This document shows positions 2-9,145 of a DNA stretch of 9,145 nucleotides, in pieces. The position numbers and the translations under genes are program-made. A model generated the notes under the pieces. The model did not search any database. It was not told the DNA's origin and was given only the letters and a program-made list of their open reading frames with translations. Source of the stretch: Thermofilum sp. (GTDB taxonomy: Archaea; Thermoproteota; Thermoprotei; Thermofilales; Thermofilaceae); the NCBI GenBank assembly GCA_020832965.1, contig JAJHRM010000099.1, positions 1 through 9,145 on the forward strand. Direction: 5' to 3'. Every line of letters starts with the position of its first letter. Within the stretch, counting starts at the first letter, position 1.

Positions 2-724
2 ATATTATTGGTAAATAATAGCGAAATTAAGTCTTTTTATGAGCGATGCGGAATACCTTCTAATAGAATTAAAATAGTACCATCAGCCATAAATTTGCAC
101 GAGTGCAAAAAATATTTGCTGCCAAGAGATTATGCTAGAAAAATCTTAGGGCTTGCAGAATCAGAAGTTGTGACTATAGGTTACATAGGTGGATTAAAGC
201 CTGAGAAAAATGTAAAAACGCTTATAAAGGCTTTTGAAGGATTTGTGAAAAGCTGTCCTAAGGCAAAGGCTAGACTCATAATTATCGGAGACGGTCCTAC
301 GAGACCAATCCTTGAAGAATACGTTAGGGAACGCGGAATTGAAAATTTTGTTTCCTTCCTAGGCTTTATTCCAAATGCATATAGGTTTCTAAATGCTATA
401 GATATCTTTGTCTTACCCTCTTTAAGTGAGGGAAGTCCAATTGCCTTAATAGAGGCTATGTCAGGTGGTAAAGCGATTATTGCCAGCAATATATCTGCTA
501 TCAAAGAGCTGGTTGAAGATGGGAAAGAGGCTCTCTTATTTGACCCACGCAATCCTGAGCAGCTTAAAAACTTAGTATTGAAACTATATAATAATCCAGA
601 GTTAAGGGAAAAACTAGGAGAAAATGCTAAAAGAAAGGCAGTACAATACGATATTAATGCTGTTTTCCCAAAAATACTTCATATCTATAAAGAGGCTATT
701 GTCTATAACTTCGCGCGCCAATAG
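2..724 (+). CDS. GT4-family glycosyltransferase, C-terminal part (5' end outside the window)
   Basis: The reading frame is open from base 2, so the gene starts left of the window; the TTG at 8 is not a convincing start. What remains is the end of the N-terminal Rossmann domain (I-L-L-V-N-N-S-E, then IKIVPSAINL, the usual linker 'vipngvdl' position) and a complete C-terminal GT-B domain. Visible family features are GYIGGLKPEKN (sugar-nucleotide domain start), LIIIGDGP, FLGFIPN, DIFVLPSLSEGSPIALIEAM (the E-x7-E donor-binding motif of retaining GT4 enzymes) and FDPRNPEQL. It should transfer a sugar from a nucleotide donor to a glycan intermediate at the cytoplasmic membrane face; donor and acceptor cannot be read from sequence. 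The last residues (ARQ, stop) are encoded by and just after a CGCGCGC run at 712-718, so the native C-terminus may have been replaced. Base composition is AT-rich compared with the fragment that follows. Confidence 0.9.
   Translation: MLLVNNSEIKSFYERCGIPSNRIKIVPSAINLHECKKYLLPRDYARKILGLAESEVVTIGYIGGLKPEKNVKTLIKAFEGFVKSCPKAKARLIIIGDGPTRPILEEYVRERGIENFVSFLGFIPNAYRFLNAIDIFVLPSLSEGSPIALIEAMSGGKAIIASNISAIKELVEDGKEALLFDPRNPEQLKNLVLKLYNNPELREKLGENAKRKAVQYDINAVFPKILHIYKEAIVYNFARQ
712..718. repeat. CG run, joint 1
   Basis: CGCGCGC. It lies at the very end of the AT-rich first glycosyltransferase and immediately before the GC-richer fragment of a different glycosyltransferase. Gene identity and composition both change here. 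Confidence 0.6.
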
Positions 725-1178
725 TTTAGGGCGTACAATAGTCATAGTCTCTACATTCCAGCTACCAATACCAGGAGCAGCGTGGAGGAGGCTAAGCTAC
801 TTCGCTGAACACCTTTCCCTGAAAGGTTGGAAGGTATATGTTCTGGGGGCATTCTCGCCCACCAGAGAGTTGTTAAAGTTTCCCATTAGGCTAATTACTG
901 TGAAGCGCTCTGGAAAATACGCGCTGTTTAATCTTCAGCTCCGACTGGATCTGCCAGGCTGGCCGTCCCTCATAGCAAACATCTTGGGCTCCTTACCGGT
1001 ACTAATCGTGGCTTTAGTTCTTCGGCCTGACGTACTCTTAGTGTCGATACCATGGCACGATGTTCTGCCGATGGTTTATGCTGCTGTGAAGCTCTCCGGC
1101 TCAAAGCTGGTCATCGATGTGCGCGACCCCCTAGAGCACTGGCTGCACGTATCCCGAGATCTAGCGCGCGCTTTGTAG
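719..1178 (+). pseudogene. GT4 glycosyltransferase fragment, N-terminal third only
   Basis: From GRTIVIVSTF onward the translation matches the N-terminal domain of the intact neighbour at 1185: PGAAWRRLSYFA against PGAGWTRIGFFA, VYVLGAFSP against VAVIGTFSP, and RPDVLLVSIP...LVIDVRD against RPKVVVISLP...IVFDVRD. It ends at VSRDLARAL and a stop, about 150 residues in. The rest of domain 1 and the whole donor-binding domain are absent, so it cannot be an active GT-B enzyme. No credible start exists at the expected place. The frame runs back to an ATG at 624 inside the preceding gene, but that would add about 32 residues unlike the family and a 101-nt overlap. The piece is flanked by CG runs at 712-718 and 1164-1171 and is GC-richer than either neighbour. 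Pseudogene status is strong; whether the truncated peptide is made is unknown. Confidence 0.8.
1164..1171. repeat. CG run, joint 2
   Basis: GCGCGCGC. It truncates the glycosyltransferase fragment on its left in mid-domain and is followed, 13 bp later, by the ATG of the intact paralogue, so the joint sits in that gene's leader. Confidence 0.6.
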
Positions 1179-1184
1179 TTAAAG

Positions 1185-2390
1185 ATGAAAGTTCTGTTTT
1201 TCCTCGGTTTTCCTAACCCCTTCCCCGGCGCTGGTTGGACTAGGATAGGCTTCTTTGCAAAGTATTTTAAAGATAGAGGATATGATGTGGCTGTTATTGG
1301 AACATTCTCTCCGAAAAGCTTAGGTGCCATTGGTTTTAAGAGCTGGAAGGGGGTATCGATATATAATGTTGTCCCAACATTCTGGGTTGAAAACACGTTT
1401 TCCTTGGTATTCAATGTTCTTTCGTCAATGATCGTTTTACCTATAATATTTTTGATTCTGAGACCTAAGGTTGTCGTCATATCTTTACCTACTGGTGAGC
1501 CTGCTGTTGGTGCATACTTCGCGTCGAAGATTATCCGAGCAAAGATTGTATTTGACGTGAGGGATGAATGGGAGGATTATGTTATCAGCAAAGCTTCGTC
1601 AAAGGCCTTCAGAAGAGCATACAAATTGCTTAAGGCTTTGATGACAAGCCTCTATAATAAAGGCGACCTGGTTGTTACAGTTACTCCCTCTGTTGCTCGT
1701 AGCCTCAGGCTAAGAGGTATAAAGAAAGTCAAAATCTTGCCGAACGGCGCTGACATAAATGTCTTCAGGCCTTACAAGAAGGATGTTGTTAGAAGGAGGC
1801 TTGGACGTAAAAACGATGAGTTCATTATCGTTTATGAAGGAGGTATTGGAGGATATTATAGGCTTGACGTAGGTATTAGAGCACTTGCAAGGCTTAGTAA
1901 TGAATTTCGAAACAAAATGAGATTGTTGATAGTTGGTTCTGGAGAGGTATCTAACCTACTGAGTTTGGCTGAAAATCTCGGCTTAAAAGATAATATAATC
2001 TATTTGGGCGTGAAGAAGGATAAGGTTGAGCTTGCTCAAATACTCTCAGCCGGCGACGTAGGTATAGTCCTATATGATGATAATCCCTTATGGAAAAATT
2101 CTATTCCGGCAAAGTTTTATGAGTATTGTGCTTGTGGTCTGCCTGTCATAGCTACGGTTTACGATGATTCTTTGTTAGCTGGCATAATAAAGGAACATCA
2201 GATAGGTTTGACTACGCCACCAATGGACGAGAATAAGCTTTCAGAGGCAATTACATGGCTGTACAGAAACATGCAACTTAGAGAGACTATGGGGATGAGA
2301 GCTAGAAAGCTTATAGAGGAGAAGTTCGATAGGAATAAGATTGCAGACGAATTCCTCAAGCTAATTGAAGGGATCTTAAGCGATGAGTAA
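1185..2390 (+). CDS. GT4-family glycosyltransferase (intact)
   Basis: A 401-residue GT-B enzyme, normal length for GT4. The N-terminal domain begins MKVLFFLGFPNPFPGAGW and contains VFDVRDEWE (122-130), the acceptor-side motif of WbuB-like enzymes. LPNGADINVF (185-194) is the interdomain linker. The C-terminal domain has IVYEGGIGGYYRLD (215-228), LLIVGSGE (247-254), NIIYLGV (270-276) and KFYEYCACGLPVIA (310-323), the donor-binding loop in which the first Glu of the usual E-x7-E is not obvious. A hydrophobic stretch at 73-93 probably contacts the membrane. It is inferred to add a sugar to a membrane-bound glycan precursor; specificity is unknown. The ATG is preceded only by GTTAAAG, a weak ribosome-binding site, and a CG run ends 13 bp upstream, so the native promoter or leader may be lost. 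The stop overlaps the next start by 8 nt, implying co-translation. Confidence 0.92.
   Translation: MKVLFFLGFPNPFPGAGWTRIGFFAKYFKDRGYDVAVIGTFSPKSLGAIGFKSWKGVSIYNVVPTFWVENTFSLVFNVLSSMIVLPIIFLILRPKVVVISLPTGEPAVGAYFASKIIRAKIVFDVRDEWEDYVISKASSKAFRRAYKLLKALMTSLYNKGDLVVTVTPSVARSLRLRGIKKVKILPNGADINVFRPYKKDVVRRRLGRKNDEFIIVYEGGIGGYYRLDVGIRALARLSNEFRNKMRLLIVGSGEVSNLLSLAENLGLKDNIIYLGVKKDKVELAQILSAGDVGIVLYDDNPLWKNSIPAKFYEYCACGLPVIATVYDDSLLAGIIKEHQIGLTTPPMDENKLSEAITWLYRNMQLRETMGMRARKLIEEKFDRNKIADEFLKLIEGILSDE
2367..2372 (+). promoter_or_regulatory. Ribosome-binding site for the 1403-aa gene
   Basis: GAAGGG lies about 10 nt before the ATG at 2383 inside the end of the upstream gene. It favours the 2383 start over the in-frame ATG at 2404, which has no such site. 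Confidence 0.45.
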
Positions 2391-5300
2391 ACAAATTGTT
2401 CTAATGAGAAAAATAATAATAGTTACCGTATTCGCTGTATTATTCTCGATATTTACATTATGGTTGATAGACTCGTGGATAAAGTATCCGCTCTTCCTCT
2501 TCGAAATCTTCACTATATTACTTCTATACCTTATAATCGACAACTATGAAGTAAAGGTAAAAGTAAGCTTTTCATGTAATGTGAGATTAAACTGGGGGGT
2601 TATCATCGATTCCCTACTAATTTCTTTTTCAACGATTCTCTTTCTATTGATTTTCATGAAGATAAATGGAGGGATAATGCAAGTGGTATTAGCTTTGCTC
2701 TGCACGTCCTTGCTTCCAGGTTACGCTTTGCTAAACGTTTCTGAATTAGGCAAATACTTCTCCAGAGTAGAAAGTGTGGTTCTCGCATATTTACTCAGCT
2801 ACATATTTACTGGGCTGGTAACTCTCCTGTTTCTTCCTGCAAGTAATGACTACCGCGCTATGTTACTTTTACTTTGCTACATCGGACTGGGGGTATACTC
2901 TATGCTTAAACATAAGCGTCATCCCCAATTATCAACGCGGGAGTCGTTTGCAAGAAAAATTGACCTCCTAGCTATCATGTTAACCATAGGATTCTACATT
3001 CTATCGTTCTACTTCATATATCCAGGCTTCGCACTATTACCCGGTACAGACATTTCACGACATTATGCCAATAGTATTGTATTGGGCAGGACTCCTAACC
3101 TCTACATTGGATCAACTTACTTGTTTGCTCACCTTCATGAGTCTGTTTTCATTACTCTTTCGAATTCATCGTTGATTTCTGTTCAAATAGCCTTGGCCGC
3201 GTTAAATTTGATGTTACCTTTAGCATTTTATGTTATGGCAAAATCATATTTAGAAAAGGTTGATACCAGACTACCTGCATTGGCTACGCTTTTTTGGGTG
3301 CTCTTTACGAACGGCTTTGGCGGTTTTGCTTGGCTATACTTTACCCTATCAAAACTTTCTTCGATTGGGCAGTCTCAGCTTCAACTTTTATCTTCTACTG
3401 CAGACAAAACGTATAATGGAGTAATGTATGGCGTATTTGGATTATGGTATGTTCCAGCTACAATATCTTTCATTCTCTTAATGGTGGCAATCTTTCTAAT
3501 GGGCAAAAAAGAGATCGAAAGAACACGGTACATTACGCTTTTCTCCTTTTTAGTTTCTGGATTATATTTAACACATGTAGCAGAAGCCTTAGTTTTTATC
3601 CTCTTCCTCGCAGTTTTCGGGTTAATATCAAAAAATGAGAATTTCAGAATAGAGGACGCATTAAAGTCCAGCATATTTGGTATGGTAATTGTGATCGCAG
3701 TTTACTACGTTTTAGCCCAAGTTACTCCGCGTTTCATAGTCAATACTTCTCTTCTAATCTCAACAATCGTACCAATAATAGTCTCCATGTTTACATTAAT
3801 TTTTAGGCATTACATTCGTCCAAGACTATCAATATTTAAAAGTTCATTTAAAATCGATAAGAAATTCCTTGGGAAAGTACTTCTCTTATTGCTTTTCTTT
3901 GGATATTGTGTAGCCCTTTTATCGTGGACGATTGTTTTAGATTCTTTCCACACATGGCAGGTTGACACAATAGGTTTAGTTCCATGGTTCATGTACCCCG
4001 TAATACTCGGTATAAACGGTTTACTGGCAATATCAGCTCTATATTTCCTTACAGAAGACTCGAAACTTTACAATGCGTTTGCGCTTTTCATAGCCTTTAT
4101 GGTGTTCGCTTTCGTAGCTGGAAAAATCGTAACAACAGTAAACCTTTACTTTTTTGATGCTGGATATTGGGAGAAACGATTTATATGGTTTATAAAAATA
4201 CCCTTGGCAATCCTCGCCCCAATACCAATAATCTATGTTATTGATAAGTTGAGGAAAAGAGGCATAAACGTCAATGCAAAAACTCTAGTTTCTGTCACAG
4301 TAATTGGAATCATTGTACTTTACGGAATCTCCACGACATTTCTCAACCTAGAATACTGGAACATAGTGGCAAACAATCCAGCCTATCAGCCCTCCTCAGG
4401 CGAGATGGAAGCCCTAAACGCTTTAAAAGAAATATTTGATAATGATCCTAAATCTTGGTTGGCCACTATAACAGGCACATCCGCTGATATGGCAACCTTT
4501 GCTGCGCCAGCAGATCAACTTGCTTTAAAGCAACTTTTACTTACAGCCTATACGCCTGAAATGGTCCTCACTCAACTTTACAGGTTTCCAGTCTATGATC
4601 ACGCATACATTTACTTGCATAACAGGGACTTTATGCAACTAAACAAATTTAATGACCGCCTACTGGCAAACTATATAAAATTGTTGCCAATAGTCTATGA
4701 AAACTCTGAGGTAAAAATCTACAATGTATCCAAAGTTTCTCCACCTATGCCTAACAGTAATACCGTGCTAATAATGCCTCTCGACAAATCATTATGTGAC
4801 GAGCAGAGTCTTTACACAGCTTATAGTCTTCTTTCTCAAGGACTATACAATTATACAGTTGCCTATGACCTTGATGATAAAGCCCTCAACTCAAAGACGC
4901 TCGTGCTATCGTACGACCCTCCCAAAGAAAACATTCTGACAAGCTTCTATGAAGACCATTTCAACGGAACACTAGCTTCCTATGCTATTGCAAAAGGAAG
5001 CTGGCAAATAGTTAGCGGAGAGCTACTTGGAGGTGAAATTGGAAAATACAGTGAAGGGATAATTCTTTCGCCAATTTTCGCTGAAAATTTCACAGCGTCC
5101 TTTAAAGCCAAGCCCGTAAGTGGGAATGCTTCAGTAGCAAACTACGTTAGCCTCGTATATTCGTGGGTGGACTCCAAAAACTATAGAATTGCAGACATCT
5201 TATTCGGTACAGACTCTTACGTCTACGTTCATTTTAGAACAATAGTTAATGGAGTTGAGAGAGCGATACCGAATTGGCCTGGAATTAAAACAGACCTTAA

Positions 5301-6594
5301 ATGGAATTTTGGCGATGAATACAACATTACGGTTATTGTCAATGGTACACGAAACCAGATTGTAGTGAATGGTAAAACCTACTTATCTACGGAACTGGAA
5401 AATATTCCTGGAAGGATAGGGCTTCGCTATTATAGGTTCTACCAAGTTTCATTTGATGAACTTTCGCTTATGTATAGTATTTCGCTTAACCTTCGCCCAA
5501 TAGAAGATTATCTAACATTTCTAGAATCAGGTGGAAAACTCATTATTTTAAACGTAAACGGCTACCATTTCTTTGCAAGCAAACTCTTCTCGGTTGAAAA
5601 CTCCACATTAAACGCAGAAAAAATTGAAATGGAAAAGAAGACGTTAAACTTGCCGGCAAAAATCACCACGCCGAAACTAACCCTAAAAAGCTCTAAAACA
5701 TCGGTTTTAAGCCGATACATAGGATTAAACGATGAAACCCCCTTTATTGTGAAACAAAGTTTTGGCAAAGGCGAACTATTCTACGTAAACATAAAACCAA
5801 TCATTGAGGCATTACGTAAAGATGAGGCATCTGCGTATTATTCTTTACTTGGTAGTCTACTGGAAGATTTAAATCTGCCAAAAATAAAACCAAATTTTGT
5901 CTTAAGCGGAGATGGATACGTTAAAGAAGTACTGTTGAAAAATGGCGTAAACGTTGAAACAACCTCCATAATATTTCCTGAAAAAACTGTGCATAAGCAA
6001 ATTGAGATCAGAACAAGTAACGAAACTATCGTTTTTCTCAACGTGACGAGCATAAAGATAGAGAATTATTCAAAATTGCTTGTCAAGACAGAAAACCTTA
6101 CGATAAGCAATGGACAAGGATTTTACGCAACCCTAAAACTTAATAGTGAACTTATAATAAAACCTTACGAGGGCACGTTTACTGTTAAAATAGCAACAAA
6201 GGAAGCTAAACGCAGCATAACCTATGTTGAACAAATCTCAATAGTACCTTACGGGACTATTCAGCTATTAGCTCGAGCACCGAAAGTAATTGCTAACGAA
6301 GCCACTTTCATCGAATTCTATACGCTTGGCTCATTAAATTGGCGAACACGAACCTACGGCCAAAATCTAAACGTAAACGGAAAAGTATGTTTTCAAATTA
6401 TACTTTCCGACAGCTACACTCTAGTAAAAAATGTTGAACTTAGTGGATCTTTTGAAAGAGAACCACCTATAGTTATGTTTAATGAACTTTCGACAATACT
6501 AATAGCTATATTTTGGGCTCTTCTATTTTTACCAATATTCATGGTATTAATCTTCTTTTTTAGGGCTAAAGAAATGACTTATAAAAAGGAGTGA
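2383..6594 (+). CDS. Giant polytopic membrane protein, probable GT-C-like transferase with LamG-like outer domain
   Basis: A 1403-residue protein with no frameshift. Residues 1 to about 655 are a polytopic region with roughly 14-16 hydrophobic segments. The loop PGTDISRHYANSIVLGRTP (220-238), with its Asp and His/Arg, is placed like the first catalytic loop of GT-C transferases, which use lipid-linked sugar donors. From about 656 the chain is hydrophilic and rich in N-x-S/T sequons (781, 823, 861, 902, 915, 981, 987, 1073, 1213, 1220, 1228, 1238), suggesting the outer face. Residues 795-848 and 1037-1165 (YLTFLESGGKLIILNVNG, GKGELFYVN) look like two halves of a class-I glutamine-amidotransferase-like fold. 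Between them, about 855-1028, sits a beta-rich LamG/concanavalin-like module (GSWQIVSGELLGG ... IGLRYYRF). A last helix (about 1370-1393) and basic tail RAKEMTYKKE anchor the C-terminus inside. The overlap with the GT gene ties it to glycan work. Transferase activity is inferred; a sugar-binding surface or transport role is possible. Confidence 0.85.
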   Translation: MSKQIVLMRKIIIVTVFAVLFSIFTLWLIDSWIKYPLFLFEIFTILLLYLIIDNYEVKVKVSFSCNVRLNWGVIIDSLLISFSTILFLLIFMKINGGIMQVVLALLCTSLLPGYALLNVSELGKYFSRVESVVLAYLLSYIFTGLVTLLFLPASNDYRAMLLLLCYIGLGVYSMLKHKRHPQLSTRESFARKIDLLAIMLTIGFYILSFYFIYPGFALLPGTDISRHYANSIVLGRTPNLYIGSTYLFAHLHESVFITLSNSSLISVQIALAALNLMLPLAFYVMAKSYLEKVDTRLPALATLFWVLFTNGFGGFAWLYFTLSKLSSIGQSQLQLLSSTADKTYNGVMYGVFGLWYVPATISFILLMVAIFLMGKKEIERTRYITLFSFLVSGLYLTHVAEALVFILFLAVFGLISKNENFRIEDALKSSIFGMVIVIAVYYVLAQVTPRFIVNTSLLISTIVPIIVSMFTLIFRHYIRPRLSIFKSSFKIDKKFLGKVLLLLLFFGYCVALLSWTIVLDSFHTWQVDTIGLVPWFMYPVILGINGLLAISALYFLTEDSKLYNAFALFIAFMVFAFVAGKIVTTVNLYFFDAGYWEKRFIWFIKIPLAILAPIPIIYVIDKLRKRGINVNAKTLVSVTVIGIIVLYGISTTFLNLEYWNIVANNPAYQPSSGEMEALNALKEIFDNDPKSWLATITGTSADMATFAAPADQLALKQLLLTAYTPEMVLTQLYRFPVYDHAYIYLHNRDFMQLNKFNDRLLANYIKLLPIVYENSEVKIYNVSKVSPPMPNSNTVLIMPLDKSLCDEQSLYTAYSLLSQGLYNYTVAYDLDDKALNSKTLVLSYDPPKENILTSFYEDHFNGTLASYAIAKGSWQIVSGELLGGEIGKYSEGIILSPIFAENFTASFKAKPVSGNASVANYVSLVYSWVDSKNYRIADILFGTDSYVYVHFRTIVNGVERAIPNWPGIKTDLKWNFGDEYNITVIVNGTRNQIVVNGKTYLSTELENIPGRIGLRYYRFYQVSFDELSLMYSISLNLRPIEDYLTFLESGGKLIILNVNGYHFFASKLFSVENSTLNAEKIEMEKKTLNLPAKITTPKLTLKSSKTSVLSRYIGLNDETPFIVKQSFGKGELFYVNIKPIIEALRKDEASAYYSLLGSLLEDLNLPKIKPNFVLSGDGYVKEVLLKNGVNVETTSIIFPEKTVHKQIEIRTSNETIVFLNVTSIKIENYSKLLVKTENLTISNGQGFYATLKLNSELIIKPYEGTFTVKIATKEAKRSITYVEQISIVPYGTIQLLARAPKVIANEATFIEFYTLGSLNWRTRTYGQNLNVNGKVCFQIILSDSYTLVKNVELSGSFEREPPIVMFNELSTILIAIFWALLFLPIFMVLIFFFRAKEMTYKKE
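6583..6594 (+). promoter_or_regulatory. Strong ribosome-binding site and stop/start overlap leading into a broken gene
   Basis: AAAAAGGAG spans 6583-6591 and overlaps a GTG (6591) that itself overlaps the TGA of the giant gene. GGAG lies 8 nt before the ATG at 6600, the better start. A native downstream operon gene evidently began here, but only its first codons survive. Confidence 0.6.
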
Positions 6595-6599
6595 AAGTT

Positions 6600-6656
6600 A
6601 TGTGCTTCCAAAATATTTTTGAGTTGAGTGGAGCGCGCGCTTATGAATTTCCAGAT
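6600..6656 (+). pseudogene. Orphan gene start (about 11 codons) plus 16-bp spacer
   Basis: ATG at 6600 opens MCFQNIFELSG (with MKV in front if GTG 6591 is used). It resembles the opening strand of a GT4-type glycosyltransferase (MKVL..NIFELSGA-), though that identification is weak. It meets a CG run at 6633-6640, then 16 bp (6641-6656) of unrecognised sequence, then a second CG run that opens the FkbM fragment. The frame stays open through both runs, so translation from this good ribosome-binding site would make an 11-residue leader fused to the methyltransferase remnant until the frameshift at 6815-6818. Confidence 0.4.
6633..6640. repeat. CG run, joint 3
   Basis: GCGCGCGC at the point where the start of an operon gene is cut after about 11 codons. 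Sequence on the left is AT-rich; beyond the next run it is very GC-rich. Confidence 0.55.
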
Positions 6657-6664
6657 CGCGCGCG
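6657..6664. repeat. CG run, joint 4
   Basis: CGCGCGCG, 24 bp from the start of the previous run, immediately before the truncated FkbM methyltransferase (RARAAGRVYAIEP). Part of it may be native Arg-Ala codons of that gene. Confidence 0.55.
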
Positions 6665-6814
6665 GGCGGCGGGCCGCGTTTATGCTATCGAGCCGGGCCC
6701 CTCCACAGTAGCGGTTCTCAGGGTTAACGTTGAGCGGAACAGGTGCGGTAACGTGGTGGTGTGCGAAGTTGCGGCCTGGTCTGCGCGAGGGAGGCTTGTG
6801 TTGAAGGTCCTCCA

Positions 6815-6818
6815 CCCC
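6815..6818 (+). other. Frameshift site in the FkbM remnant (extra C in a C run)
   Basis: CCCC. With three Cs the two halves of the methyltransferase join in one frame (V-L-H-P-M-Y-G-Y-A-S). Confidence 0.65.
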
Positions 6819-7068
6819 GATGTATGGCTACGCCTCCGCCGTGCGGGAGGGCGCGAGCGTAACCGTGGACGCTTTGACCCTAGACGATATTTTGCGGGGT
6901 GAGACTTCGATCCACATTATCAAAATCGATGTCGAGGGCGCGTTGCTAGAGGTTCTCAAGGGCGCTCGGGGCGTGCTCCGCAGGACGCTCTACGTGGTTG
7001 TCGAGCTGTCGCGTAACGCCCGCGATGTATTGAGGGAGCTTCTGGGCGCTGGATTTGTGTGCAAGAAA

Positions 7069-7074
7069 GCGCGC
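7069..7074. repeat. Short CG run inside the FkbM remnant (not a joint)
   Basis: GCGCGC, only 6 bp, encoding Ala-Arg within FVCKKARFTTY. The protein reads through it naturally, so it serves as an internal control: CG runs can be ordinary codons in this GC-rich DNA. Confidence 0.6.
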
Positions 7075-7106
7075 TTCACCACATACATTTTACGCGAACG
7101 GGGGTA

Positions 7107-7110
7107 GGTG
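7107..7110 (+). promoter_or_regulatory. GGTG ribosome-binding site before the wecB-like remnant
   Basis: GGTG follows the FkbM stop, 3 nt before the ATG at 7114, matching the archaeal 16S anti-Shine-Dalgarno end. It supports 7114 as a former true start. Confidence 0.4.
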
Positions 7111-7113
7111 TGT

Positions 7114-7155
7114 ATGAAGGTTTTTCTGTGGTCGGTACTAGACCCAATTACGCGC
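7114..7155 (+). pseudogene. UDP-GlcNAc 2-epimerase remnant, first 14 codons
   Basis: As it stands the ATG at 7114 reads MKVFLWSVLDPITRAVLEKL then stop. Adding one T to the T5 run at 7121-7125 gives MKVFSVVGTRPNYA, which is the N-terminus of WecB-type UDP-N-acetylglucosamine 2-epimerases and closely parallels MKVISVVGARPNYV of the intact gene at 8749. After codon 14 the sequence passes through a CG run into an unrelated ATP-grasp gene. Codons differ enough from the intact copy that this is a separate, diverged gene start and not a recent duplicate. Confidence 0.75.
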
Positions 7156-7158
7156 GCG
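7151..7158. repeat. CG run, joint 6
   Basis: CGCGCGCG. This is the clearest joint: 14 codons of a wecB-like epimerase on its left, the N-terminal domain of an ATP-grasp enzyme on its right. Confidence 0.7.
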
Positions 7159-7240
7159 GTTCTCGAAAAGCTCTAGCCATGGCGCAATCGCTGAAGGCTT
7201 TTGGAGCTAGAGTTCCCAGCGTGACGCACTATACTACCGA

Positions 7241-7246
7241 CCCCCC
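7241..7246 (+). other. Frameshift site in the ATP-grasp remnant (extra C in a C run)
   Basis: CCCCCC. With five Cs the two frames of the remnant join as T-T-D-P-H-R-F-S-R-F-F-D-R. Confidence 0.55.
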
Positions 7247-7466
7247 ACCGTTTCTCCCGTTTCTTCGATCGCGTTATCGTTTTGCGCGAGGTGGATAGGA
7301 AGAGTGTCTTGTGGGCGGTGCACGTAGCGGAGATCGTGGCGGCGCAAGGAGCAGAGCTCGTAATCCCTGTGGATTTCGTCGATGTGATTACGCTCTCGTC
7401 TTACGCGGAAATTTTCGAAAAGTTGGGCACGAGGCTAGCTGCGGTGCTAGAAGTATCTAGGAAGGA

Positions 7467-7474
7467 CGCGCGCG
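7467..7474. repeat. CG run, joint 7
   Basis: CGCGCGCG, continuing into GCCGCGG. It ends the ATP-grasp remnant and opens the next glycosyltransferase remnant; the two are in different frames, so no fusion protein crosses it. Confidence 0.6.
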
Positions 7475-7538
7475 GCCGCGGTGGGTAGGAGCCCGCGGGA
7501 AATCGCTTACAGTTTTGTTTTCGACGAGGTTGTTCGGC

Positions 7539-7541
7539 TTT
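7539..7541 (+). other. Frameshift site in the glycosyltransferase remnant (extra T)
   Basis: TTT. With two Ts the frame joins as F-D-E-V-V-R-L-R-A-W-G-V-S. Confidence 0.45.
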
Positions 7542-7627
7542 AGGGCTTGGGGTGTCAGCTTCTACGATGTGCGTAAGAGCCAGCTGCTTGAGCTGCCGCT
7601 GAGGTTGAACAGGCTAGTATTTTACAC

Positions 7628-7634
7628 CGCGCGC
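7628..7634. repeat. CG run, possible joint 8
   Basis: CGCGCGC encoding part of Y-T-A-R-Y. Composition drops abruptly from GC-rich to AT-rich here, but the reading frame and a plausible glycosyltransferase pattern continue across it, so it may be native codons. Confidence 0.4.
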
Positions 7635-7745
7635 TACTTATACTGGAACCTCTTGTATTCTCAATTTAGAGGGAATGTTAATCGTACAAATATTATTTTA
7701 GCTACCATAAGATTTTCAAAACTAATCGAGACTCTCCGGGCGTGA

Positions 7746-8032
7746 TCATTATTCCTATGTTTCACAATAATGATCCATCGAAAAATATTAGAGAGGCCAT
7801 CTATATCTGTGTATAATGTAGCAATAATTTTAGATGATATAGATGTAACATGGTTGTTATGAATATTAAATTTTCATATATGGAGAATATACTTTATCTC
7901 GGAGTGTTAACATTTTTATCTATCGTTTTCTTTATTAATGCTCTTAGAAAGCGAACTAAAAAGCTAGCATACAGTATGATATATTGTTATTACTGTGATG
8001 AGATATCGATTTTTAATTAAGAATCGAAGACT
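7746..8032. other. AT-rich, gene-poor stretch
   Basis: About 290 bp, strongly AT-rich, with stops in all frames. A GTG at 7742 opens 24 codons (VIIIPMFHNNDPSKNIREAI...) that faintly recall the start of GT2 transferases, but the ORF ends at 7816 and the likeness is too short to trust. The only longer open frame is the small ORF at 7850. No RNA gene, transposase remnant or inverted repeat was seen. Confidence 0.5.
7850..8020 (+). CDS. Possible small membrane protein (56 aa)
   Basis: An ORF from ATG 7850 (or 7859 or 7886) to TAA 8018-8020. It contains one clear hydrophobic segment, ILYLGVLTFLSIVFFINAL, followed by the basic stretch RKRTKKL, as expected of a single-span protein with a cytoplasmic C-terminal tail that ends YCYYCDEISIFN. 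No ribosome-binding site of note precedes any of the starts, and no family is recognised. It lies in the AT-rich gap between the broken genes and the methyltransferase. It may be a real small protein, the tail of a decayed membrane glycosyltransferase (the same frame upstream holds the GTG ORF at 7742), or a chance ORF. Confidence 0.25.
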   Translation: MVVMNIKFSYMENILYLGVLTFLSIVFFINALRKRTKKLAYSMIYCYYCDEISIFN

Positions 8033-8734
8033 ATGACTGAAGTGCGCAAAGGCGAAGAGCCTGTCGAGCCGAGCATTTGGGATTTGAAAGGGAGAGCTAG
8101 GCGCAGGCAGGAGCGCAGGGCGCAAGTAACAGCTTGGTACCTGCAGCCAAAAGAGCGGGATGTCATCTTGGATGTCGGTTGCGGCGATGGTTTTATGACT
8201 AGTTACTTCTCGAAGGCCGGCTTTGTAGTGGGTTTGGAGCTTTCCTGTCGCTCGCTCGAAGTTGCCAAGCGGAAGGTACCTAAGGGTAACGTGCAGTTTG
8301 TTTGCGCTGATGCGAGCTTTATCCCGTTGAGAAGCGACTCGATTGATAAGGTGGCCGTACTCGAGGTCTTGGAGCATTTGCCTGTAGAGTCCCAGCAAAT
8401 GGTTTGCAAGGAGGTCGATAGAGTTTTGAAAAAAGGTGGGGTTCTCGTGGTCACAGTGCCTTACAAGGAAGAGATCGTTTATACTCGCTGTATTCACTGC
8501 GGGAAGCTGACTCCATTGTGGGGTCACTTACATTCTATGGACGTGGAGAAGGTCAGCAAACTTTTACCTCCGGGCTACGTGCTGGTAGCCAAAGCTCACT
8601 TCCCAAATCTAGAATTTGTATCAATATCGGAAATTTTTCATAAACTCTCATTTACATTATGGTTAATTATTAATAATTTACTTAGAATTATAAAGAAGGG
8701 ATATTGGATTTTGCTGAAATATAAGAAGTTTTAG
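8033..8734 (+). CDS. Class I SAM-dependent methyltransferase (Methyltransf_11-like)
   Basis: A 233-residue protein with the Rossmann methyltransferase order intact: LDVGCGDG (46-53, SAM motif I), acidic E69 after the second strand (VVGLELS), CADASFIP (91-98, motif II), VAVLEVLEHLP (107-117) and VLKKGGVLVVTVP (131-143). After the core, C153-x-x-C156 and H165-x-H167 in TRCIHCGKLTPLWGHLHSMD could bind a metal; related glycan-locus methyltransferases carry a similar C-x-x-C-G...GH block. It probably methylates a small molecule or glycan, since it has no RNA- or DNA-binding domain, but the acceptor is unknown. The N-terminal 30 residues are highly charged (GRARRRQERRA). The C-terminal tail after about 190 is hydrophobic and basic, and its DNA turns AT-rich, perhaps a membrane-associating extension. 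ATG 8033 has only a weak GAAG upstream. The gene ends 14 nt before the epimerase start. Confidence 0.88.
   Translation: MTEVRKGEEPVEPSIWDLKGRARRRQERRAQVTAWYLQPKERDVILDVGCGDGFMTSYFSKAGFVVGLELSCRSLEVAKRKVPKGNVQFVCADASFIPLRSDSIDKVAVLEVLEHLPVESQQMVCKEVDRVLKKGGVLVVTVPYKEEIVYTRCIHCGKLTPLWGHLHSMDVEKVSKLLPPGYVLVAKAHFPNLEFVSISEIFHKLSFTLWLIINNLLRIIKKGYWILLKYKKF
8717..8725 (+). promoter_or_regulatory. Possible leaderless-type TATA promoter for the epimerase
   Basis: AAATATAAG is centred about 28 bp before ATG 8749, the spacing expected if transcription starts at the ATG as in many archaeal leaderless genes. The epimerase has no ribosome-binding site, which fits. It lies in the methyltransferase's last codons, and AT-rich sequence makes chance matches easy. 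Confidence 0.3.
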
Positions 8735-8748
8735 AAGATGAATTAGTT

Positions 8749-9145
8749 ATGAAAGTTATCTCAGTAGTTGGAGCTAGGCCCAACTATGTTAAATTGGCAG
8801 CTGTTCACGATGTCTTTTCAAAGTTTTTCGACCACGTTATAGTGGACACCGGTCAGCATTACGATTACGAGATGAATAGGGTGTTTTTCGAGCAGCTGGA
8901 GATCCCGGAGCCGGACTACTTCCTCGGCGTAGGGAGCGGCTCTCACGGGTACCAGGTTGGCGAGGTTGTCAAGCGGGTGGAGGAGGTTCTGTTGAAGGAG
9001 CGTCCCGATCTCGTGGTTGTGTACGGCGACACGAACTCGACGCTGGGCGGGGCGCTCGCGGCCGTTAAAGCCGGATTCAGAGTCGCGCACGTGGAGGCTG
9101 GCTTGCGGTGCTTCGACATGTCGATGCCGGAGGAGGTGAATAGGA
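8749..9145 (+). CDS. wecB: UDP-N-acetylglucosamine 2-epimerase, N-terminal 132 residues (3' end outside the window)
   Basis: WecB-type epimerases interconvert UDP-GlcNAc and UDP-ManNAc in the cytosol, supplying ManNAc (and ManNAcA after oxidation) for surface glycans. The start MKVISVVGARPNYVKLAAV is the family signature. It is followed by VDTGQHYDYEMNRVFFEQLEIPEPDYFLGVGSGSH, the QVGEVVKRVEEVLLKERPDLVVVYGDTNSTLGGALAA strand-helix block, and VAHVEAGLRCFDMSMPEEVNR, all conserved and in the usual order. The intact frame runs off the right edge; full members are about 360-390 residues. ATG 8749 lies 14 nt after the methyltransferase stop with no ribosome-binding site. The first ~85 bases are about 40% GC, the rest clearly higher. 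A 14-codon remnant of a second epimerase gene lies at 7114. Confidence 0.93.
   Translation, partial: MKVISVVGARPNYVKLAAVHDVFSKFFDHVIVDTGQHYDYEMNRVFFEQLEIPEPDYFLGVGSGSHGYQVGEVVKRVEEVLLKERPDLVVVYGDTNSTLGGALAAVKAGFRVAHVEAGLRCFDMSMPEEVNR

What the first reader, a model, noticed from the sequence alone, without database searches (positions are those of the whole stretch)
712..7634. Gene fragments joined at 7-8 bp alternating CG runs
Seen: runs of 7-8 bp of alternating CG occur at 712, 1164, 6633, 6657, 7151, 7467 and 7628, found by eye. Six fall where a recognisable gene fragment begins or ends; the seventh falls at an abrupt composition change. None was found in the intact genes (1185-2390, 2383-6594, 8033-8734, the epimerase). 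By a rough composition estimate only about one such run would be expected. No longer consensus surrounds them. The sequence is self-complementary, so any two ends carrying it could anneal. Inference: fragments of glycan genes have been stitched together by CG microhomology, which would be the most stable short pairing at high temperature, or by an unknown recombinase or nuclease acting on GCGCGC. This could be a mechanism for shuffling surface-glycan genes.
Basis: partly seen in the sequence, partly recalled or inferred. Interest (0 to 1): 0.78.

Follow-up and report, generated by a model that had tools for sequence, protein, structure and literature searches.

The report
Decayed gene pieces joined at CG runs
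In a sugar-coat gene region that seems to come from a heat-loving archaeon, broken gene pieces meet at short CGCGCGCG stretches, which looks like repair scars left by sticky CG ends rather than a system for building new genes.

Summary
All seven runs are exactly where stated, against 0.5-0.7 expected. Homology edges give nine boundaries between gene pieces. Five carry a run within 2 bp; random placement gives 0.66. Leaving out two ordinary gene borders it is 4 of 7 (P 0.0002; boundaries were listed knowing the claim). Runs 6633 and 7628 have no mapped joint. The mosaic pieces are mostly frameshifted, all on one strand, start to end, so they look like a shrinking operon, not shuffled working genes.

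In a related chromosome (G116, by length Thermofilum pendens) such runs are six times denser outside genes than inside, and some lie just upstream of TATA-like boxes. None of the window's runs do. In G116, copied gene fragments end at runs of 6 bp or more at 4 of 19 ends vs 0.7 expected, including a two-piece mosaic with a run at each end. Broader sets show about twofold.

Best reading: end joining or template switching by CG microhomology, as the primase PriSL does in Saccharolobus (PMC12019639). No dedicated recombinase or gene-shuffling system is supported; host genome not held.

The parts
2..724 (+). C-terminal part of a GT4-type glycosyltransferase (GT1), cut by the contig start
   Evidence: Pfam Glycos_transf_1 5e-39; C-terminal homology ends at about 699
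712..718 (.). CG run CGCGCGC in the overlap between GT1 and GT2
   Evidence: ordinary gene border, not a shown joint
699..1178 (+). N-terminal domain only of a second glycosyltransferase (GT2); C-terminal domain missing; its frame is open
   Evidence: P0001-P0004; 83% to P0002 and P0004, 64% to P0003
1164..1171 (.). CG run GCGCGCGC at the truncated end of GT2
   Evidence: relative P0003 ends in the same peptide DLARAL
1185..2390 (+). intact GT4-type glycosyltransferase
   Evidence: 38% to L008
2383..6594 (+). intact large protein (1403 aa), function not assigned
   Evidence: 24% to L008 over 1347 aligned positions; no NCBIfam match; not scanned against Pfam
6633..6640 (.). CG run GCGCGCGC between unassigned short stretches
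6657..6664 (.). CG run CGCGCGCG directly before the FkbM remnant
6666..7107 (+). FkbM methyltransferase remnant: about 114 N-terminal residues missing against P0005, and a frameshift
   Evidence: P0005 73%
7114..7157 (+). about the first 15 codons of a UDP-GlcNAc 2-epimerase copy with a one-base frameshift
   Evidence: 7125-7157 aligned; the first codons and the frameshift read by eye (ATG at 7114)
7151..7158 (.). CG run CGCGCGCG at the joint epimerase piece / ATP-grasp piece
7161..7467 (+). N-terminal piece of an ATP-grasp-type protein (full-length relatives about 600 aa), with a frameshift and a small gap
   Evidence: the family name is recalled, no profile scan of the full-length relatives was made
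7467..7474 (.). CG run CGCGCGCG at the joint ATP-grasp piece / GT3 piece
7472..7574 (+). N-terminal piece of a third glycosyltransferase (GT3), internally frameshifted
   Evidence: relative at L102 6101-7381 minus strand
7628..7634 (.). CG run CGCGCGC beyond the last mapped edge
8033..8734 (+). intact class I SAM methyltransferase
8749..9145 (+). UDP-GlcNAc 2-epimerase, cut by the contig end

Best explanation
The GC-rich parts of the window are the remains of a glycan-synthesis operon that has been shrinking. Stretches of FkbM methyltransferase, epimerase, ATP-grasp-type and glycosyltransferase genes were lost, and the leftover ends were joined where short alternating CG sequences could pair. 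Shown: runs sit at four truncation joints; the pieces keep one strand and start-to-end direction; those in 6666-7574 carry frameshifts; a related chromosome has copied gene fragments ending at CG runs. Inferred: the joining is microhomology-mediated end joining or template switching, most likely by the replicative primase PriSL, which in Saccharolobus islandicus anneals strands sharing 2-4 GC pairs. Also inferred: CG runs are over-used because non-coding DNA of this lineage is rich in them.
For:: 5 of 9 boundaries at runs (random mean 0.66, none of 20,000 trials reached 5 at 2 bp; P 0.001 at 8 bp); 4 of 7 without the two ordinary borders (P 0.0002; 0.0027 at 8 bp); edges 6666, 7157/7161, 7467/7472; no run of 7 bp or more at the matching places in the genes printed (6 other epimerases and the window's own, 7 ATP-grasp starts, 5 matching stretches at the ATP-grasp end, 1 GT, 2 distinct FkbM); in G116 the stretch between runs at 1662334-1662340 and 1662583-1662590 is a 98% copy of one gene piece plus a 99-100% copy of another; the donor ends lack runs, and donor CGC abuts recipient CG; 3 of 18 ends of nine fragment copies have a run of 6 bp or more; with the second mosaic half added by hand 4 of 19, 0.7 expected; 10 of 125 vs 4.6 and 9 of 100 vs 4.3 for runs of 7 bp or more. 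G116 has a PriS match and no Ku match. PMC12019639 (abstract and passages seen).
Against: Boundaries were listed knowing the claim. An alternating CG run can only read as Ala and Arg, so it can stretch an alignment by a residue or two. Four of nine boundaries have no run; 6633 and 7628 have no known joint. In one search only 1 of 18 ends has a run of 7 bp or more (0.5 expected; 2 of 19 with the added half). In one search the matching donor ends lie near runs nearly as often (7 of 125), and for runs of 6 bp or more it is 15 vs 9.9 expected, donors 13. The G116 epimerase has a 6-bp run 9 bp before the joint-matching place, so such positions can carry CG natively. P0004 is joined within a shared NSRLVVT stretch. 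The ancestral sequence is unknown. The host is unknown: its epimerase is closer to L001 and L002 (78-79%) than to G116 (68%), P0013 (67% to the FkbM piece) is labelled a Desulfurococcales MAG, and the L002 genome sample has no such excess outside genes. In the PriSL paper most repair indels were 1-2 bp.
Confidence: 0.48

Rival explanations
1. The runs are simply a non-coding, partly promoter-associated motif of the lineage. They gather wherever DNA is no longer coding, so they fall at gene borders and in remnants without taking part in any joining.
For: In G116 runs of 7 bp or more are 1.26 per kb outside genes vs 0.21 inside. CGCGCGC is the most frequent 7-mer outside ORFs of 100 aa or more in a 419-kb sample, 4.9 times denser than inside. 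A TATA-like box lies 3-11 nt downstream on 42 of 271 sides facing a start vs 62 of 2255 control sides.
Against: The window runs fall at exact joints inside coding remnants and none of their 14 sides meets the promoter criterion. Five per 1046 bp equals the highest density on G116 contig C2. The position test keeps the run density.
Confidence: 0.26
2. Coincidence of GC-rich coding: runs are Ala-Arg codons of GC-rich genes and the alignment edges drift onto them.
For: Alternating CG reads as Ala and Arg in every frame. Second-order composition gives 2.2 runs in 6595-7640, observed 5, P 0.08. The G116 epimerase has a 6-bp run close to the matching place.
Against: The genes printed have no run of 7 bp or more at these places; edges from two sides meet at 7157/7161 and 7467/7472.
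Confidence: 0.13
3. A site-specific nuclease or recombinase acts on GCGCGC and shuffles glycan genes.
For: Every run of 7 bp or more holds GCGCGC, and none exceeds 8 bp.
Against: All six pieces lie on one strand; the mosaic pieces are frameshifted; several boundaries have no run; none of the ten proteins matches a recombinase. The host genome could not be searched.
Confidence: 0.05
4. Assembly or amplification chimera.
For: The window equals the 9145-bp longest contig listed for P0001 and no genome is held. No reads could be checked.
Against: P0007 (98%, ENA contig of 8475 bp) is an FkbM piece with the same start, though that Met is also present in the intact P0005 and so does not prove the same break; P0015 is identical to the window's ORF and is listed with a 1609-bp contig but no source; P0003 ends in the same peptide at 64% identity. 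An 8-bp overlap is too short for common assemblers (general knowledge).
Confidence: 0.07

Closest known systems
Primase-mediated microhomology end joining / polymerization across discontinuous templates, Saccharolobus islandicus PriSL (PMC12019639; abstract and passages seen)
   Same: A hyperthermophilic archaeon; annealing needs only 2-4 GC pairs; template switching would give copied pieces as in G116 1662338-1662585
   Different: Reported indels are mostly 1-2 bp; alternating 7-8 bp CG runs and operon remnants were not in the passages seen
Helicase Q / polymerase theta end joining with templated insertions (PMC8654963, search listing only; rest recalled)
   Same: Short copied inserts with microhomology at the ends
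   Different: Eukaryotic work; no such enzyme was sought here
Genome instability at Z-DNA-forming repeats (PMC6957503, search listing only)
   Same: Alternating sequence linked to instability
   Different: Runs here are only 7-8 bp; no DNA structure was tested
GC-rich BRE upstream of archaeal TATA boxes (PMC5777992, passages seen; its table lists Thermofilum pendens)
   Same: GC-rich element just upstream of TATA
   Different: The G116 element is an alternating CG run 3-11 nt from the TATA-like box

Membership tests
Microhomology-mediated end joining scar | Joint lies at a short sequence that both partners could share | tested here: inconclusive
   Runs lie at the joints, but the intact partners of this strain are unknown; distant relatives lack a run of 7 bp or more there
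Microhomology-mediated end joining scar | Sequence lost between the joined pieces | tested here: met
   Most of the epimerase, the rest of the ATP-grasp-type protein and about 114 FkbM N-terminal residues are missing
PriSL-mediated repair | Archaeal primase present, Ku absent | tested here: inconclusive
   Tested only in the relative G116: PF01896 match, PF02735 no match; host genome not held
PriSL-mediated repair | Joints depend on the enzyme | not testable with these tools
   needs an experiment
Site-specific recombination / gene shuffling | Recombinase gene | tested here: inconclusive
   None among ten window proteins scanned with Pfam; host genome not held
Site-specific recombination / gene shuffling | Recombined products with open reading frames | tested here: not met
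   Pieces in 6666-7574 are frameshifted; GT2 alone keeps an open frame
Site-specific recombination / gene shuffling | Both orientations at a palindromic site | tested here: not met
   six of six pieces on the + strand
Promoter-associated CG element (seen in G116) | TATA-like box 3-11 nt from the run | tested here: not met
   0 of 14 sides of the seven window runs; criterion

The most novel reading that the evidence does not exclude
In Thermofilum-like archaea, promoter-linked alternating CG runs act as preferred break and insertion sites. Repeated CG-primed template switching drops copied gene pieces there, slowly turning surface-glycan loci into mosaics.
Probability: 0.12. Interest if true: 0.75.

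Novelty: new variant of a known kind. Interest (0 to 1): 0.45.

Why it matters
How archaea without Ku mend broken DNA is open. Natural scars with a recognisable CG signature would let repair be read from genomes and would test whether the primase pathway shown in Saccharolobus acts elsewhere. It would also show how glycan loci decay and diverge.

Tried and rejected
Own-genome count: no genome held. Viral contigs: no relative of GT2. Phylum scan for GT2: 8 of 398 genomes, 38% identity or less. The joint ORF 7059-7295 elsewhere: no protein among 2 candidates; weak partial hits in 2 of 81 genomes. The stretch 6595-6665 as FkbM: the alignment did not support it. CG-run excess outside genes in samples of other genomes: not seen in G002 (15 runs of 7 bp in or more inside, 2 outside) or G235 (43 inside, 2 outside), too few in G005 (7 inside, 1 outside), present in G211 (69 inside, 34 outside in a tenth of the length). 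I first took the G116 promoter motif as the whole explanation; the exact joints and argued against it. Reading run 7628 as conserved coding sequence was by eye only; one search found no homolog. In one search CGCGCGC is 3.2 times its second-order expectation outside ORFs, but CCGGCGG reaches the same ratio; what sets CGCGCGC apart is its density outside versus inside (4.9 vs 1.8). (71 of 2152 alignment ends near runs vs 37 after shifting) is not used as a test because its ends are not independent. Dropped rows: output was cut, so no count rests on it, only the mosaic and its donor ends; one search listed six events, one (946005) set aside as low complexity, and its event at 1123842-1123917, with a run at one end, fails the identity cut and is not in the 4 of 19; the half at 1662436-1662585 failed the non-genic filter and was added by hand.
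Full report
Observation. The seven runs are present at the stated places. The window has 7 runs of 7 bp or more where first- and second-order Markov models give 0.51 and 0.71; none of 200 simulations per model reached 7. Within the GC-rich stretch 6595-7640 the excess is smaller: 5 against 1.0 (P 0.01) or 2.2 (P 0.08). No run of 7 bp or more lies in 1185-6594 or 8033-9145. The window length equals the longest contig listed for its own protein P0001, and no genome is held for it.

Anatomy. Positions 2-724 hold the C-terminal part of a glycosyltransferase. Positions 699-1178 hold only the N-terminal domain of a second one, 83% identical to P0002 and P0004 and 64% to P0003. The next two genes (1185-2390 and 2383-6594) are intact and resemble genes of L008. 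Then comes the mosaic. A frameshift-aware alignment shows FkbM methyltransferase from 6666 to 7101, lacking about 114 N-terminal residues compared with P0005. An epimerase start, aligned from 7125 and read by eye from the ATG at 7114, ends at 7157. The N-terminal piece of an ATP-grasp-type protein spans 7161-7467, with full-length relatives of about 600 residues (the family name is recalled). A third glycosyltransferase piece spans 7472-7574. All pieces are on the + strand in start-to-end direction. One search reads through frameshifts in FkbM, ATP-grasp and GT3; the one in the epimerase piece is by eye. From 8033 the genes are intact again.

Joints and runs. Nine boundaries were listed from alignment edges. 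Five carry a run within 2 bp: the GT1/GT2 border, the GT2 end, the FkbM 5' edge, epimerase/ATP-grasp and ATP-grasp/GT3. Four do not. Placing two runs at random in 700-1184 and five in 6595-7640 gives 0.66 hits on average and reaches 5 in none of 20,000 trials; at 8 bp tolerance P is 0.001. Without the two ordinary gene borders it is 4 of 7, P 0.0002 (0.0027 at 8 bp). The list was made knowing the claim, so these P values are optimistic. The genes printed show no run of 7 bp or more at the matching places: six other epimerases and the window's own, seven ATP-grasp starts, five stretches at the ATP-grasp end, one GT and two distinct FkbM genes. The G116 epimerase has a 6-bp run 9 bp before the matching place. 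All are distant relatives, so the ancestral sequence of this strain stays unknown.

Are the joints real? P0015 equals the window's frameshifted FkbM product; it is listed with a 1609-bp contig but no source, so what it stands for is unclear. P0007 (98%, 95 residues, 8475-bp ENA contig) has the same start; that Met also exists in intact P0005, so the shared start suggests but does not prove the same break. P0008, P0009 and P0014 are FkbM pieces on further contigs. P0003 ends in the same DLARAL peptide. This speaks against a single assembly accident, though reads were not available. P0004 joins the GT2 domain to an epimerase C-terminal part within a shared NSRLVVT stretch, so CG is not the only glue. 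Its DNA was not seen.

A related chromosome. A search with P0013, a relative of the FkbM piece, matched 10 of 81 genomes of one class, G116 by far best (48%). Its glycan locus L102 holds relatives of several window genes. Its contig length of 1,781,889 bp is, from memory, that of Thermofilum pendens; GC is 57.7%, and PMC5777992 lists 0.58 for that species in what I take to be the GC column. The window's host is not settled. Its epimerase is closer to L001 and L002 (78-79%) than to G116 (68%), and P0013 itself is labelled as a Desulfurococcales MAG. Over the G116 contig, runs of 7 bp or more number 345 in genes (0.21 per kb) and 220 outside (1.26 per kb); the ratio outside to inside grows from 1.2 at 5 bp to 8 at 8 bp. 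Outside ORFs, in a 419-kb sample, CGCGCG is the most frequent 6-mer and CGCGCGC the most frequent 7-mer. A TATA-like box starts 3-11 nt downstream of a run on 42 of 271 sides facing a gene start, 7 of 169 facing away, and on 62 of 2255 and 27 of 1703 control GC stretches. In 126 of 1844 genes a run lies 20-80 bp before the start, against 39 at 140-200 bp. So part of the runs there look like promoter elements. Gene calls are from a simple dicodon script, not from an annotation. None of the 14 sides of the window's runs meets the same criterion. Samples of other genomes show the excess in G211 but not in G002 or G235, so it is not general.

Fragment ends in G116. Between runs at 1662334-1662340 and 1662583-1662590 lies a mosaic of a 93-bp piece 98% like an epimerase part and a piece of 150-158 bp that is 99-100% like a stretch at another gene's end. 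The donor ends carry no run; the outer joints have donor CGC against recipient CG. Among nine low-copy gene-fragment copies outside genes, 3 of 18 ends have a run of 6 bp or more nearby; adding the second mosaic half by hand makes 4 of 19, with 0.7 expected (Poisson P 0.006). For runs of 7 bp or more it is 1 of 18, or 2 of 19, with 0.5 expected. Broader sets give 10 of 125 against 4.6 and 9 of 100 against 4.3. For runs of 6 bp or more they give 15 against 9.9 and 13 against 7.6. In one search the matching donor ends were near runs in 7 of 125 (13 for 6 bp or more), so that contrast is weak. The two densest places for runs on this contig, 5 per 1046 bp, lie in its repeated gene family; that is the density seen in the window.

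Mechanism. One strand and kept order fit successive deletions in a once collinear operon better than joining of random palindromic ends. In Saccharolobus islandicus the primase PriSL anneals strands sharing as few as two GC pairs and switches templates, and overproduction of PriL raises repair of CRISPR-cut DNA (PMC12019639, abstract and passages). G116 has the primase small subunit and no Ku match. I take CG-microhomology joining or template switching as most likely, at 0.48, lowered from 0.5 after rechecking because the 7-bp count and the G116 epimerase speak less clearly than first written. The enzyme, and any role of pre-existing promoter runs as break sites, are inference.

Print status. 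Searches for Thermofilum with intergenic and CGCGCG, for CGCGCG with archaeal promoter, and for Thermofilum with pseudogenes and gene fragments (one paper listed, on tRNA introns) found no earlier report in the library searched; most subscription papers are not in it.

Noticed in passing
G116 contig C2 (L102-L122, L131-L208): Alternating CG runs of 7 bp or more 3-11 nt upstream of TATA-like boxes; 32 of these 42 lie 33-57 nt before a start codon: a likely promoter element.
   Followed up: partly
L102 12335-12591: Mosaic of two recently copied gene pieces (98% and 99-100%) between two CG runs.
   Followed up: yes
L102 13979-14146 and 7512-7787, minus strand: Truncated N-terminal glycosyltransferase pieces in the G116 glycan locus; the second, named by eye, ends close to a CG run.
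   Followed up: partly
G116 C2, mostly 228-1158 kb: A repeated gene family with many truncated copies, some ends at CG runs; identity of the family not determined.
   Followed up: no
protein P0004 (6499-bp JGI contig): Glycosyltransferase N-terminal domain fused in frame to an epimerase C-terminal part.
   Followed up: partly
window 2383-6594: 1403-residue protein without an NCBIfam match, 24% to a protein of L008 over nearly its full length.
   Followed up: no
window 7640-8032: AT-rich (29% GC) stretch with no clear homolog among the fetched loci.
   Followed up: partly
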